This document shows positions 1 to 7,954 of a DNA stretch of 8,359 nt, piece after piece. Position 1 is the first letter of the stretch. Every line of letters starts with the position of its first letter. Under the pieces are notes generated by a model. That model ran no database searches. It had not been told where the DNA came from and saw nothing but the letters and a program-made list of their open reading frames with translations. This stretch comes from a bacterium (GTDB lineage: Bacteria > Thermosulfidibacterota > Thermosulfidibacteria > Thermosulfidibacterales > Thermosulfidibacteraceae): assembly GCA_027022065.1 (NCBI GenBank), contig JALVZS010000110.1, positions 723-9,081 of the forward strand, written 5' to 3'. Both the position numbers and the translations under genes were made by a program.

Positions 1-279
1 TTTGAGAAGAGGGTCTGCAGAAGCTATCGGCTGAACTTGGGGGCATCAGTTGGAGCTTTGTACTACCAGACAAGGGATGCGCCTAAGTATCCGCTTCATC
101 ATGTTGAGGGTGCGGGAGATTACAGGGGAGAAAGGTTCTTAGGCTTAGGATACGATCTTAAGCTGGTAGCTGAGCGCTTTTTCGCGAAGAACCTTTTGCT
201 AGGATGCCTCCTTGAGTACTCCAAAACCACCAACTATAAGAAATTCAATATGGGTCTCTCTTTAAGGTATCTTTTCTAA
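1..279 (+). CDS. C-terminal part of a probable outer-membrane beta-barrel protein (5' end outside window)
   Basis: The reading frame is open from base 1 to the TAA at 277-279, giving 92 visible residues. A TTG at 37 could be mistaken for a start, but the frame continues upstream without a stop, so this is the tail of a longer gene. The visible part has alternating polar and hydrophobic stretches rich in Gly, Tyr and aromatic residues, including GLGYDLKLVAERFF, LLLGCLLEYSK and a last strand GLSLRYLF. A final amphipathic strand ending in Phe is the usual sorting signal of BAM-assembled outer-membrane barrels. Some TPR-barrel exopolysaccharide export proteins end in a comparable way, but too little is visible to assign a family. 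The gene converges on dut, and the two stop codons overlap at 276-279, leaving no room for an intergenic terminator. The barrel assignment is inference from strand pattern and C-terminal Phe; the substrate is unknown. Confidence 0.55.
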   Translation, partial: FEKRVCRSYRLNLGASVGALYYQTRDAPKYPLHHVEGAGDYRGERFLGLGYDLKLVAERFFAKNLLLGCLLEYSKTTNYKKFNMGLSLRYLF

Positions 280-707
280 CAACCTGTGGAGCCAAAGCCT
301 CCCTCTCCTCTTTTTGTGGGGGATAGAGGGGCCTCTATAAAGTCTGCTTTGTAAACTCTGCAGAGCACTCCTTGGGCTATGCGCTGTTTGGGCTTTACAG
401 TTAAGGGTCTGGGCGAGAGGTTTATGAGGATGACCTTAACCTCCCCTCTGTAGTCTGCATCCACGGTGCCTGGGGCGTTTAGAACAGTTACACCCTGGTT
501 TGCAAGGCCGCTTCTCGGTCTTATCTGTATCTCAAAGCCTTCTGGAATCTCAAAGGCAACACCTGTCGGTATTAAGGCCCAGCTACCTGGCTCTATGATT
601 AGGGGCTTTTCAATGGCTGCCTTCAAGTCAAAGCCAGATGCCCCCTCGCTCATGTACTCCGGGAGCAGCTCCTTGTCCTTTGTTACTAGCTTAACCTTTA
701 CCCTCAA
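276..707 (-). CDS. dut: dUTP diphosphatase (dUTPase), trimeric type
   Basis: This enzyme hydrolyses dUTP to dUMP and pyrophosphate in the cytoplasm, keeping uracil out of DNA and feeding thymidylate synthesis. All five motifs of the trimeric family are present in the 143 residues: motif 1 ASGFDL (23-28), motif 2 PRSGLA (64-69), motif 3 GTVDADYRGE (80-89, with catalytic Asp83 and base-stacking Tyr86), motif 4 RIAQ (109-112) and the flexible P-loop-like motif 5 RGEGGFGSTG (133-142). Length is normal for bacteria. The start is TTG at 705-707: an in-frame TGA lies two codons further upstream, and the next ATG (codon 19) would remove the conserved N-terminal strand. The start overlaps the end of the RecO-like gene by 17 bases, with only a weak purine run (GAGAGAAA) before it, so translation is probably coupled. 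It is the last gene of the minus-strand operon. Confidence 0.96.
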   Translation of the reverse strand: MRVKVKLVTKDKELLPEYMSEGASGFDLKAAIEKPLIIEPGSWALIPTGVAFEIPEGFEIQIRPRSGLANQGVTVLNAPGTVDADYRGEVKVILINLSPRPLTVKPKQRIAQGVLCRVYKADFIEAPLSPTKRGEGGFGSTGC

Positions 708-1200
708 TTTCTCTCAAACCCCTTTTTACGAGCTTCCACATCTCTTTGAGATTATGGCACTTCTTTGAGAAGATAAAGCCCATTACTGATTCACCTTTGG
801 GCATTAGACCTTCCTTGAAGAGTACCCCTGCCAAGAACCAGGTTAAATAAAACTTCGCAATTTCCAGACTAGTGCACTTCCTTAGTGAGTGCAGGTATCT
901 GCCAAAAACAAATCTTGATGGCTCTGCGAGGGGGAAGTAGCGGAATACGGGAAGTGCGTAGAGGTGAAGAAACAGGGCCTCCTGAGGAAAGGTTTCAACT
1001 AGCTCGTACTCATTACAGGTTGCTATCCCTAAGCTTTTGAAGTTCAGAACAAAAGAGTAGAGGGCAGGCTCCGGCAGCGGCCTTTTGGAGTTCAAGTGGA
1101 TGAGGAGCTTTCCTTCCTCAAGGCTGAAGGCGTATATCCTCTGGGAGCCGTCAAAGAGTGTTTCCTTTTCAAGGACTATGGCGTGGACTATCCTCTCCAT
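691..1200 (-). CDS. Small RecO-like protein (divergent, no zinc module)
   Basis: This is a 169-residue soluble protein without an obvious standard annotation. Its layout resembles RecO, the RecFOR mediator that anneals single strands and loads RecA. An N-terminal stretch (about 1-40) has AIVL at 7-10 and EEGK at 28-31, where RecO's OB-fold has its AIVL and HGK positions. GIATCNEYELVETFP (58-72) matches the RecO pattern of a Gly-led turn followed by E-L-x-E-x-F. The helices at 74-133, with a Leu/Phe/Tyr-rich core and ending in GLMP, correspond to RecO's helical domain and its 'LLGxxP' end. Canonical RecO then carries a four-Cys zinc site and more helices (about 240 residues in all); here only a short basic tail (134-169) with one Cys follows. 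The ATG at 1198-1200 is chosen because further upstream the frame is a shadow of the kinase ATPase domain. It has no good Shine-Dalgarno and overlaps the kinase by 32 bases, so coupling is likely. The homology is a remembered-pattern inference. Confidence 0.5.
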   Translation of the reverse strand: MERIVHAIVLEKETLFDGSQRIYAFSLEEGKLLIHLNSKRPLPEPALYSFVLNFKSLGIATCNEYELVETFPQEALFLHLYALPVFRYFPLAEPSRFVFGRYLHSLRKCTSLEIAKFYLTWFLAGVLFKEGLMPKGESVMGFIFSKKCHNLKEMWKLVKRGLREIEGKG

Positions 1201-2287
1201 CCTTGGGCAGGTATATGGTGAAGGTTGTTCGCCCCGGAACGCTAGAGAGCGTGATTCTGCCATGGTGGGCCTCAACGATTCTGTGAACGATGGCAAGGCC
1301 CAATCCTGTTCCTCTTTTCTTTGTGCTGAAAAAGGGATCAAACACCTTCTTTTGCACCTCCTTGGGTATGCCACAGCCCGTGTCCGTTACGGATATAAAG
1401 GCCTCATTTTCCCTCTCCCCTACCTCCACAGTGATGCTTCCTCTATCCTCTATGGCCTGAATGGCATTTATGAGAAGATTTAAGATGGCTTGCTTCAGCA
1501 GCTCTCTATCTGCCCAGGCCCTTATCGCTTTTCCTTTTATCTCAAGCTCTATGCCCTTTTCCCTCAAGGCATGGGTTGCCGCCTCGGCACACTCTTCTAC
1601 TACCTCCTTCAGCTCCAAAAGCTCCTTCTCAACATGGAGGGGCCTTGTGAAGATGAGCATGTTGGATATGAGGTTGTTTATGCTTTTGACCACCTTGGTT
1701 ATGCTCTCCGCCCACCTTTTTACCTCGGGGTCTCCCTCTTTCCTTATTAGCCCTGCGAAAAGCTCAATGGATCCTAAGGGATTCCTTATCTCGTGGGCTA
1801 TGGTTACCGCCATCTCTCCCATGGCCGACAGCCTCTCCTTTCTTTTGTTCTCCTCTTCCAGCTCCCTTTCCCTGGTTATGTCCCTTAAAACCACGACCTT
1901 GCCTATCTCCTTTCCGTCCTGCTTTAGGGGGAAGTTGCTTACCTTCACCACCTTTCTCTCTCCGTCTATGGTGTAGAACTCCAGCTCTCCTTCCAGATTG
2001 GGCAGAAAGGTGTGGATCTTTTTGCCGTCCTCAATCCCGAAAAGCTCCTTTGCCTTCTGGTTGGAGGCTATAACCGTTTCTTCCCTGTTTATGGCGATAA
2101 CTCCGTCGTTTATGCTTTCTATAATGGCTTTAAGGAGGTTCTTCTGCTGGCTCAGCTCCTCGCTTAACCTTTTCACCTCCTCTTTAAGCGCCGTATAGGA
2201 GCGGTTGAGCTCCTCCGTTGCCTCAATGAAGTGCTTCAGCGCTTCCTTGAGCGCTAGAGTTTCCCGAAACTGCTCTTGCAACTTCAT
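1169..2287 (-). CDS. Soluble PAS-domain sensor histidine kinase (FlrB/FlgS/NtrB-like)
   Basis: This is a 372-residue kinase that autophosphorylates on His and passes the phosphate to a response regulator. Domains in order: an N-terminal coiled coil (about 1-50, Glu/Lys/Leu heptads), a PAS domain (about 50-140, IIESINDGVIAINREE to VVVLRDITRE), a HisKA dimerisation domain with the H-box AHEIRNPLGSI (phospho-acceptor His165), and a HATPase_c domain with N-box NLLINAIQAI (270-279), G1 DTGCGIP (302-308), F-box FDPFF (316-320) and G2 GTGLGLAI (326-333). There is no signal peptide or membrane segment, so it senses a cytoplasmic cue. A cytosolic coiled coil plus PAS plus this H-box style is typical of kinases paired with sigma-54 activators, such as flagellar FlrB/FleS/FlgS and NtrB; which applies here is not shown. 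No response regulator is visible. ATG 2287 is supported by AGGGAG 7 bases upstream, inside the TPR gene, which it overlaps by 65 bases. Confidence 0.92.
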   Translation of the reverse strand: MKLQEQFRETLALKEALKHFIEATEELNRSYTALKEEVKRLSEELSQQKNLLKAIIESINDGVIAINREETVIASNQKAKELFGIEDGKKIHTFLPNLEGELEFYTIDGERKVVKVSNFPLKQDGKEIGKVVVLRDITRERELEEENKRKERLSAMGEMAVTIAHEIRNPLGSIELFAGLIRKEGDPEVKRWAESITKVVKSINNLISNMLIFTRPLHVEKELLELKEVVEECAEAATHALREKGIELEIKGKAIRAWADRELLKQAILNLLINAIQAIEDRGSITVEVGERENEAFISVTDTGCGIPKEVQKKVFDPFFSTKKRGTGLGLAIVHRIVEAHHGRITLSSVPGRTTFTIYLPKDGEDSPRHSP

Positions 2288-5344: not shown

Positions 5345-7347
5345 GTAGGGGTCCTTTCCGAGAGCATCTGCTCCAGCCTCCTTTTAAGTGCCTTTATCTC
5401 GTCCCTTATCATGGCCGCCTTCTCAAAGGCCAGCTCTTCTGCCGCCTTCTTCATCTCCCTCTCCAGCTTTTTGATCTTCTCCTCTATCTCCCAGGGGGAT
5501 GCCTCCTTCACCTCCTCCTCAATAGGCACCGTGTAGTAGTCCTTCTCATAGACGGAGTCTAGGATGTCTTTTATGGCCTTCTTTATGCTCTGTGGGGTTA
5601 TTCCGTGCTTTTTGTTGTACTCCTCCTGTATCCTGCGCCTTCTTCTCATCTCCCTAATGGCCCTTTCCATTGAGCCTGTGATGGTGTCCGCATAGAGAAT
5701 CACCGTTCCATTCACATTCCTTGCAGCCCTTCCCGCAGTCTGTATGAGAGACCTCTCAGAGCGCAAAAAACCTTCCTTGTCCGCATCCAGTATGGCAACT
5801 AGGGACACCTCCGGAATGTCCAGTCCTTCCCTCAGAAGGTTGACTCCCACGAGGACATCGTAAACGCCCTTTCTTAAGTCCCTTATGATCCTGGTCCTCT
5901 CAATGGTCTCTATCTCTGAGTGGAGGTAGGCCACCTTTATGCCGAGATCCATGAGGTAGTCCGTCAGCTCCTCCGCCATCCTCTTAGTGAGGGTAGTTAC
6001 AAGCACCCTTTCTCCCCTCTCAATGCGCTTCCGGATCTCCAAGTAAAGATCCTCCACCTGGTTCTTGGCGGGCTTCACGATCACCTCGGGGTCCATGAGC
6101 CCCGTGGGCCTTATTATCTGCTCCACCACATAGGGACCTGACTTCTCCAGCTCGTAGTCTCCCGGAGTGGCGGACACGAATATTACCTGGTTGATTTTGC
6201 TCTCAAACTCCTCAAAGGTTAAGGGCCTGTTGTCAAGGGCGGATGGGAGCCTGAATCCGTACTCTATGAGGTTGAGCTTTCTTGATCTGTCTCCCTCGTA
6301 CATCCCTCTGAGCTGCGGTATGGTGACGTGGGACTCATCTATGATTATGAGGGCGTCCTTGGGCAGATAGTCTATGAGGGTGGGAGGAGGCTCTCCGGGC
6401 CTTCTTCCCGTGAAGTGGCGGGAGTAGTTCTCTATGCCCTTGCAGTAGCCTATTTCCTGTATCATCTCCAGGTCAAACATGGTTCTCTGCCAGAGGCGCT
6501 GTGCCTCCAAGTGCTTTCCCATCTTCTTGAGCTCCTTCACCCTCTCCTCAAGCTCCATCCTGATGGATACCAGGGCCTTTTTCATCCTCTCCTCAGTGGA
6601 GATGTAGTGGGTGGCGGGATACACAGTGAATCTCTCCACATTCTCTATTACTGCACCTGTTAGGGGGTCTATGAGGCTTAATGCCTCTATTTCATCCCCC
6701 CAGAACTCTATCCTCAGGGCCTGATCCTCAAGGTGGCTGGGATAAACCTCAACCACATCCCCCTTGACCCTGAAGGTGCCCCTGGTGAAGTCGTAGTCGT
6801 TCCTCTTGTAGAGTATCTTCGTGAGCCTCTTTATAACCTCTTCCCTGCTTATCTCGTCTCCCACATCCAGGGTAAGCACCATCCCGTAGTAGGCTTCAGG
6901 TGATCCCAGCCCGTATATACAGGATACCGTGGCCACGATGATGACATCCCTTCTCTCTAAAAGGGCACTTGTTGCCGCATGGCGCATCCTGTCAATCTCG
7001 TCGTTTATGGAGCAGTCCTTCTCTATGTAAAGGTCCTTCTGTGGGATGTAGGCCTCGGGCTGGTAGTAGTCGTAGTAGGACACAAAGTACTCAACGGCGT
7101 TCTCCGGGAAGAACTCCTTGAACTCCGAGTAGAGCTGTGCCGCCAGGGTTTTGTTGTGGGAGATGACGAGGGTAGGTCTGTTGAGCTGCGCTATTACGTT
7201 TGCCATGGTAAAGGTCTTGCCAGAGCCCGTTACCCCAACTAGAGTCATATATTTTACGCCCTTCTTTGCCCACTCCACCAGCTTCTCTATGGCCTTAGGC
7301 TGGTCCCCTGCGGGCTTGTAGCTTGAAACGAGCTTAAATCTTCCCAT
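5341..7347 (-). CDS. uvrB: Excinuclease ABC subunit B (UvrB)
   Basis: UvrB is the damage-verifying helicase-like subunit of nucleotide excision repair. UvrA delivers it to DNA, and it then recruits UvrC. At 668 residues it is full length. In order: the N-terminal [17 protein letters not shown] typical of the family, Walker A GVTGSGKT (38-45), the tyrosine-rich beta-hairpin [14 protein letters not shown] (89-102) that clamps one DNA strand, the UvrA-interacting domain 2 (roughly 150-250), Walker B DESH (337-340), motif IV/V elements [15 protein letters not shown] (500-514), motif [10 protein letters not shown] (536-543) and a C-terminal UVR coiled coil (about 625-658, [19 protein letters not shown]) that binds UvrC. 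No disruption is seen. The ATG at 7345-7347 fits the family N-terminus but has no Shine-Dalgarno within 20 bases; the upstream sequence is AT-rich and promoter-like, so a very short or leaderless 5' end is possible. It is first in the six-gene minus-strand operon. Confidence 0.99.
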
Positions 7348-7387
7348 GGCTTATAAAAAGTTATATGTTCTTGTGGGAGGTGGCAAG
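7348..7387. promoter_or_regulatory. Divergent intergenic region with putative promoter(s)
   Basis: This 40-base gap separates uvrB (minus) from the polyprenol-kinase-like gene (plus) and is the only true non-coding interval in the window. Its left half is AT-rich (TTATAAAAAGTTATATG, 7351-7367). On the minus strand, TATAAC (7365-7360) could be a -10 box; TTGCCA (7386-7381) resembles a -35 box, though the 15-base spacer is short. A transcript from it would begin within a few bases of the uvrB ATG. On the plus strand, TATAAA (7352-7357) or TTATAT (7361-7366) are -10 candidates without a convincing -35 box. The assignment rests on sequence resemblance only. Confidence 0.4.
7375..7380 (+). promoter_or_regulatory. 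Strong Shine-Dalgarno (GGGAGG) fixing a TTG start at 7388
   Basis: GGGAGG lies 7 bases before the TTG at 7388-7390, the same spacing seen for the TPR, kinase and prepilin peptidase genes. It decides the start of the polyprenol-kinase-like gene in favour of the TTG over the in-frame ATG at 7346. That ATG has no ribosome site and sits back-to-back on the uvrB start codon. Confidence 0.8.
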
Positions 7388-7954
7388 TTGAATACCCTGG
7401 AAGTGAGAAGGCAGATATTCCACATCGTCAACGGCACCCTTATACTTCTCGCCTACTCCCACTGGGGAAGGCCTGTGGGATGGGTACTACTTGTGCTCTC
7501 CCTTGCAGGTGCCGGGCTTTCCCTTTACCATGTGAAGGTAAGCCCTATAAAGTGGGCCACGCCCTTTTTGAATGCCCTTGAGAGGGAGGAGAACATCCTC
7601 TCCTTTCCTGGAAAAGGAGCGGTGCTCTACGGGCTTTCGGTGGGTCTGGCTATAATCCTCTTTCCTCCCTTTGCCGCAAAGGGTGCCATTTGTGCCCTTG
7701 CCTATGGAGATGCTTTTTCCACCATAGTGGGAAAGTTTCTGGGCAGGATAGCCATTCCATGGAACAGATCCTTAAGCCTTGAGGGAAGCCTCGCCTTTAT
7801 CATCACAACTTTCATGGGGGGCTCCTTCTTTGTGTCCTACTGGCACGCGCTGCTTTCCGGTGTTGTGGGAGCCTTGGTGGAGACCGTTCCCTTTGTTGAC
7901 GACAACCTGAGCATACCGCTGGCGGTGGGGCTTGTTCTAACCGTGGTTGGCTGA
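7388..7954 (+). CDS. Dolichol/polyprenol kinase-like membrane protein (SEC59/DGK1/VTE5 superfamily)
   Basis: This polytopic membrane protein, 188 residues from the TTG start, belongs to the CTP-dependent lipid kinase / cytidylyltransferase-like superfamily. That superfamily includes dolichol kinase, yeast DGK1, phytol kinase VTE5 and many uncharacterised bacterial members. Family signatures: the N-terminal EVRRQIFHIVNG (5-16), the core YGDAFSTIVGKFLGR (106-120) with the GDA motif, the SLEGSLAF stretch (130-137), a membrane-embedded VE pair (164-165) and the DNLSIPLAVGL motif (172-182). Hydrophobic segments lie at about 17-25, 30-48, 78-105, 134-165 and 174-187. Such proteins phosphorylate a membrane alcohol (polyprenol, diacylglycerol or phytol) using a nucleoside triphosphate; the actual substrate cannot be read from sequence. 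The stop is followed two bases later by the DedA ATG, so both are in one operon. The TTG start is preferred over ATG 7346 because of a perfectly spaced GGGAGG and the family-like N-terminus. Confidence 0.85.
   Translation: MNTLEVRRQIFHIVNGTLILLAYSHWGRPVGWVLLVLSLAGAGLSLYHVKVSPIKWATPFLNALEREENILSFPGKGAVLYGLSVGLAIILFPPFAAKGAICALAYGDAFSTIVGKFLGRIAIPWNRSLSLEGSLAFIITTFMGGSFFVSYWHALLSGVVGALVETVPFVDDNLSIPLAVGLVLTVVG

What the first reader, a model, noticed from the sequence alone, without database searches (positions are those of the whole stretch)
691..1200. Possible cryptic RecO: a short, zinc-less version between a kinase and dUTPase
The sequence shows an AIVL/EEGK N-terminal pattern, then GIATCNEYELVETFP and a Leu-rich helical block ending in GLMP, in the same order as RecO's OB-fold and helical domain. 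The four-Cys zinc module and C-terminal helices are absent (169 versus about 240 residues). RecO is easily missed in deep-branching thermophiles because it diverges fast. Co-transcription with uvrB and dut supports a DNA-maintenance role. If true, this is a minimal RecO, useful for seeing which parts are essential for RecR/SSB/RecA loading.
Basis: partly seen in the sequence, partly recalled or inferred. Interest (0 to 1): 0.6.

Follow-up and report, generated by a model that had tools for sequence, protein, structure and literature searches.

The report
Compact RecO lacking the zinc domain
An unannotated 169-residue gene next to dut is very probably the bacterial DNA-repair protein RecO in a stripped-down form without its zinc-binding domain, and it is kept at the same place in every related genome in which that place could be read.

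Summary
Window 691-1200 (-) encodes a real 169-aa protein with no Pfam or NCBIfam hit of its own. Counterparts lie beside dut in all five relatives of the same order in which dut was found. Four of these five match the RecO profiles, in the order RecO_N then RecO_C where both are hit (best TIGR00613 E 8.4e-10). The window protein plus its nearest ortholog aligns along 140 positions to 30 RecO sequences from other lineages (score 44.9; 200 shuffles reach at most 20.8). A model from the family's own alignment has an OB barrel followed by helices, and its five best PDB matches are all RecO. A deeper model matches all RecO structures at Z 12-15 over 156-167 of 169 residues, against Z 7.1 for the next fold. 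RecR is present, RecF was not found, and no canonical RecO was found in the order. One correction: the zinc domain is missing, but the C-terminal helices appear kept. Function is inferred and untested. Other lineages also hold zinc-domain-less RecO, so this is a compact variant of a known family.

The parts
691..1200 (-). Compact RecO-like coding sequence, 169 aa (ATG at 1200, TAA at 691-693)
991..1200 (-). Residues 1-70: predicted five-stranded OB-fold domain (strands 2-14, 20-26, 30-36, 47-56, 59-69)
   Evidence: AlphaFold2 models; matches RecO NTD in Foldseek and VIA-align
814..978 (-). Residues 75-129: predicted helices 1-3 of the RecO helical domain
   Evidence: RecO_C profile matches this part in orthologs P0003 and P0005
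808..810 (-). Gly131, invariant in all 30 aligned RecO and RecO-like proteins, at the end of helix 3, where the zinc domain would follow
   Evidence: invariant glycine described in PMC2475510
703..786 (-). Residues 139-166: predicted C-terminal helices, placed on RecO's C-terminal helices after a very short linker in place of the zinc domain
   Evidence: model to 169 aligned with E. coli RecO to 220; no sequence-level match of the tail alone
276..707 (-). dut (dUTPase), starting inside the 3' end of the RecO-like gene (17-base overlap); neighbour conserved in all six genomes of the order where it was found
1169..2287 (-). PAS/HisKA/HATPase sensor kinase upstream, overlapping the RecO-like start by 32 bases; same neighbour in L002

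Best explanation
The gene is this lineage's recO. The protein keeps RecO's OB-fold domain and helical domain, but lacks the zinc-binding domain that in other RecO proteins is inserted between helix 3 and the C-terminal helices. It most likely works as RecO does in bacteria without RecF (as in Campylobacterota). Its OB fold would dock on the RecR ring and on SSB-coated single-stranded DNA, and the RecOR complex would then help RecA replace SSB. Shown here by computation: homology to RecO, domain order, absence of the zinc domain, conserved place beside dut, presence of RecR and of SSB with an acidic FPF tail, and no detected RecF or canonical RecO. Inferred from the family: RecR binding, SSB binding, ssDNA binding and RecA loading.
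For: Syntenic orthologs beside dut in 5 of 5 relatives of the order with a detected dut. Ortholog hits to RecO_N and RecO_C at E 3e-3 to 5e-5 and to TIGR00613 down to 8e-10. Profile-profile score far above shuffles for every subset, including the window branch alone. The family profile's best three PDB hits are the E. coli RecO chain and two Deinococcus-type RecO chains. The family-only AF2 model (pLDDT 77) has five best Foldseek hits, all RecO. The deeper model (pLDDT 89, pTM 0.82) gives all seven RecO entries Z 12.1-14.9 over 156-167 residues, next fold 7.1. Gly131 is invariant in 30 of 30. recR in 10 of 10 genomes, recF not found in the order, no canonical recO in the order. SSB tail EEDDEFPF.
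Against: P0001 and P0002 alone match no Pfam or NCBIfam model even at E 10, and no ortholog reaches a curated cut-off. Identity to RecO is only about 15%. The deeper model's alignment contains canonical RecO sequences, which may favour that arrangement. The tail after Gly131 shows no sequence similarity to RecO tails. No functional evidence. The genome is 88% complete, so a second recO could lie in the missing part.
Confidence: 0.9

Rival explanations
1. A RecO descendant that has lost RecA-loading and been turned to another use, for example an SSB- or DNA-binding accessory coupled to dUTP control.
For: Very fast divergence (34% identity between genera of one family); loss of the zinc domain; linkage to dut rather than to recombination genes.
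Against: It is the only RecO found in the order, RecR is kept in all ten genomes searched and would otherwise lack both partners, and the RecO-invariant glycine and whole fold are kept.
Confidence: 0.06
2. An unrelated OB-fold protein of the SSB/RPA/PriB kind with a helical tail, resembling RecO by chance.
For: Many OB-fold proteins match residues 1-73, and residues 1-70 are the best-predicted part of the family-only model.
Against: Both RecO_N and RecO_C profiles hit orthologs in the right order. The profile alignment runs through OB and helical domains alike. In the deeper model every RecO stands at Z 12-15 with nearly all residues and other OB folds at 7.1 or less.
Confidence: 0.02
3. A decaying recO pseudogene, truncated at its 3' end.
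For: It is 70-80 residues shorter than typical RecO and has no zinc module.
Against: Intact, uninterrupted reading frames with similar tails of 38-51 residues after the glycine in six genomes across three families of the order, with the same place beside dut kept.
Confidence: 0.01

Closest known systems
Canonical RecO (TIGR00613; PF11967 + PF02565), e.g. Deinococcus radiodurans (1W3S), E. coli (3Q8D), Thermus (8AB0)
   Same: OB-fold domain, three-helix part with the invariant glycine, and C-terminal helices; Z 12.7-14.9 over 157-167 residues
   Different: 169 versus about 230-270 aa. Tail after the invariant glycine is 38-51 residues in this order against 85-122 in the canonical sample; no zinc domain. 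E. coli and Thermus RecO lack the zinc motif too (PMC12192639, PMC9456098), but their chains are longer (242 and 230 aa)
Short cryptic RecO of Campylobacterota (H. pylori RecO; C. jejuni RecO, 7YMO, 204 aa)
   Same: Short, highly diverged, overlooked by annotation, found where recR is present and recF absent (PMC2475510, PMC10454854); Z 12.1 over 156 residues
   Different: C. jejuni RecO keeps a 38-residue zinc domain (residues 135-172) inserted in the helical domain (PMC9456098); 204 minus 38 is 166, close to the 169 residues seen here
Zinc-domain-less RecO relatives found here in other lineages (L038, 198 aa; L067, 188 aa; perhaps L071)
   Same: No CxxC, short tail (50-66 residues) after the conserved glycine
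   Different: L038 still scores over the TIGR00613 cut-off (80 bits); these lineages share only the domain with this genome

Membership tests
RecO | N-terminal OB-fold barrel of about 70 residues | tested here: met
   Five strands in residues 2-70 in both AF2 models; RecO_N profile hits four orthologs, E 5e-5 to 7e-4
RecO | All-helical domain directly after the OB fold | tested here: met
   Helices 75-88, 96-108, 112-129; RecO_C hits two orthologs; whole-length VIA alignments
RecO | Invariant glycine at the end of helix 3 | tested here: met
   G131; 30 of 30 sequences; described in PMC2475510
RecO | C-terminal helices that complete the helical domain | tested here: inconclusive
   Predicted at 139-166 and superposed on RecO up to E. 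coli residue 220; no sequence support for the tail alone
RecO | Zinc-binding motif CxxC...C/HxxC/H/D (common in the family but not defining: E. coli and Thermus RecO lack it) | tested here: not met
   No CxxC in the tail of any of the six family members, tail too short for the domain. Not obligatory for membership (PMC12192639; PMC9456098)
RecO | Score over the curated cut-off of TIGR00613 / PF11967 / PF02565 (a detection threshold, not a biological feature) | tested here: not met
   P0001 and P0002: no hit; best ortholog 38.5 bits against a cut-off of 48.7
RecO | Partner RecR encoded in the genome | tested here: met
   recR in G000 and 9 relatives; in G000 next to a YbaB-like gene
RecO | Only RecO of the genome (no canonical copy) | tested here: met
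   No PF11967, PF02565 or TIGR00613 hit in G000, and in the order only the dut-linked genes hit; genome 88% complete
RecO | Binds RecR, SSB and ssDNA and promotes RecA loading | not testable with these tools
   Needs biochemistry or genetics

The most novel reading that the evidence does not exclude
A whole bacterial order has a minimal RecOR mediator system: RecR plus a RecO reduced to OB fold and helical domain, with no zinc domain and no RecF. That would show that the zinc domain is dispensable for RecA loading in nature, with the gene tied to dut instead.
Probability: 0.7. Interest if true: 0.45.

Novelty: new variant of a known kind. Interest (0 to 1): 0.38.

Why it matters
RecO diverges fast and is easily overlooked, as it was in Helicobacter until 2008 (PMC2475510). 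This case shows one that profile libraries miss entirely in the window genome, yet synteny and structure recover it. It gives a natural minimal RecO for asking which parts are needed for RecR and SSB binding and RecA loading; published work suggests the zinc site serves stability rather than mediation (PMC9456098), and a RecO without the domain would test that directly. For this order it fills an apparent gap: RecR present without RecF or RecO.

Tried and rejected
Direct family searches of the window protein gave nothing, so I turned to synteny with dut. A plasmid tblastn search found nothing. A genome-collection scan returned only one near relative, an unnamed MAG, so the organism could not be named. 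Searching relatives with P0001 alone finds only one ortholog, and the rest came from looking beside dut. I tried to match the tail after Gly131 to RecO tails by profile and failed, so the claim that the C-terminal helices are kept rests on predicted structure only. recF: in the order all hits were short fragments far below the cut-off, of the kind general ABC ATPases give. A promoter/terminator scan of 250-1400 gave nothing above chance. Unrelated OB-fold proteins were considered and rejected.

Full report
Observation. The reading frame at 691-1200 on the minus strand is real and open: ATG at 1200, TAA at 691-693, 169 residues. The gene overlaps the kinase upstream by 32 bases and dut downstream by 17 bases. 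The run uvrB, prepilin peptidase, TPR protein, sensor kinase, this gene and dut lies on one strand with overlapping genes, which fits an operon; no promoter or terminator signal above chance was seen in 250-1400.

Relatives. The window protein itself hits nothing in Pfam or NCBIfam. A search of 60 genomes with it found one relative, 35% identical, in the same family of organisms, again between a sensor kinase and dut. I therefore looked beside dut in the whole order. In all five relatives where dut was detected, a protein of 176-241 aa sits just upstream of dut (in G005 and G006 one methyltransferase-like frame lies between): P0002 (G002), P0003 (G003), P0004 (G006), P0005 (G005), P0006 (G004). 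The three genomes of the order without a hit to the family (G001, G007, G008) are exactly those in which dut was also not found, so the locus is probably missing from those assemblies.

Identity. Four of the five orthologs match RecO_N (E 5e-5 to 7e-4); two also match RecO_C, downstream of RecO_N as in RecO; all four match TIGR00613 reco, best E 8.4e-10 and weakest 0.12, although none reaches the curated cut-off. I extracted 30 RecO proteins from other lineages and compared profiles. The whole family scores 102.5, the window branch of two sequences 44.9, and the window protein alone 31.4. The best of 200 column shuffles in each case was 16.0, 20.8 and 23.0; reversed alignments gave 10-15. The alignment of the window branch covers positions 1-140 of its profile against RecO 3-155, that is, both the OB fold and the helices up to the point where the zinc domain begins. 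A profile of the six family members against all PDB sequences gives the E. coli RecO and two Deinococcus-type RecO sequences as its three best hits (E 0.002-0.1).

Structure. A first AlphaFold2 model used only the six family members (mean pLDDT 77): five strands in residues 2-70, then helices. Its five best Foldseek matches in the PDB are all RecO (E 6e-5 to 4e-4). Since the relative placement of domains was loose (rmsd 6-7 A), I made a second model with RecO homologs added (pLDDT 89.3, pTM 0.82). All eleven chains with Foldseek E under 0.001 are RecO. VIA-align gives seven RecO entries Z 12.1-14.9, rmsd 2.8-3.5 A, 156-167 of 169 residues aligned; the next fold is at Z 7.1 and covers only the OB part. 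This second model is not independent of the RecO hypothesis; the first is.

What is missing. In C. jejuni RecO the zinc domain (residues 135-172) is an insert in the helical domain, whose last two helices follow it (PMC9456098). Here the chain after the invariant glycine is 38 residues long (38-51 in the family), against 85-122 in canonical RecO, with no CxxC. The model places residues 139-166 on RecO's C-terminal helices. The sequence of this tail alone does not match RecO tails, so this point rests on prediction.

Genome context. RecR is present in this genome and nine relatives, next to a YbaB-like gene here. No RecF was detected in the order; all hits are short and far below the cut-off. 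SSB carries a canonical acidic tail, EEDDEFPF. No other RecO was found in this genome or order. This is the RecOR-without-RecF situation known from Campylobacterota (PMC10454854; PMC2475510), where a diverged short RecO was likewise overlooked until 2008. The genome is only 88% complete, so absences are weaker than presences; the better genomes of the order give the same picture.

Mechanism. Inferred from the family (PMC12192639): the OB fold binds RecR and the SSB linker, the helical domain contributes DNA binding, and the RecOR complex lets RecA replace SSB on gaps and resected ends. Nothing here tests these steps.

Novelty. Zinc binding is already known to be dispensable in the family (E. 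coli, Thermus). RecO relatives without the zinc domain also turned up here in other lineages (L038, L067, perhaps L071). I found no paper describing a RecO with the domain removed, but only two searches aimed at that were made, in an open-access library. I therefore call it a new variant of a known kind, of moderate interest.

Noticed in passing
window 7345-7348: The ATG starts of uvrB (- strand, ATG at 7347) and of the divergent membrane-protein gene (+ strand, ATG at 7346) overlap in one CATG, leaving no intergenic space; one of the two probably starts further in.
   Followed up: no
window 7346-7954 (+): Membrane protein without a convincing Pfam hit; the motifs RRQIFHIVNG and GDAFSTIVGKFLGR look like the dolichol/phytol kinase kind (from memory, untested).
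   Followed up: no
L038:1483-2076, L067:484-1047, L071:658-1314: RecO relatives without CxxC and with short tails in lineages sharing only the domain with this genome; zinc-domain loss may have occurred several times.
   Followed up: partly
L047, L048, L049 (recR of G001, G000 and G003): RecR of the window genome and of G001 and G003 scores under the curated TIGR00615 cut-off (145-161 against 162.55 bits), while family f3 of the order scores about 192-203; RecR may be diverging together with this RecO.
   Followed up: no
L006 and L007, between the RecO-like gene and dut: A methyltransferase-like frame of about 220-233 aa lies between the RecO-like gene and dut in genus g5 only.
   Followed up: no
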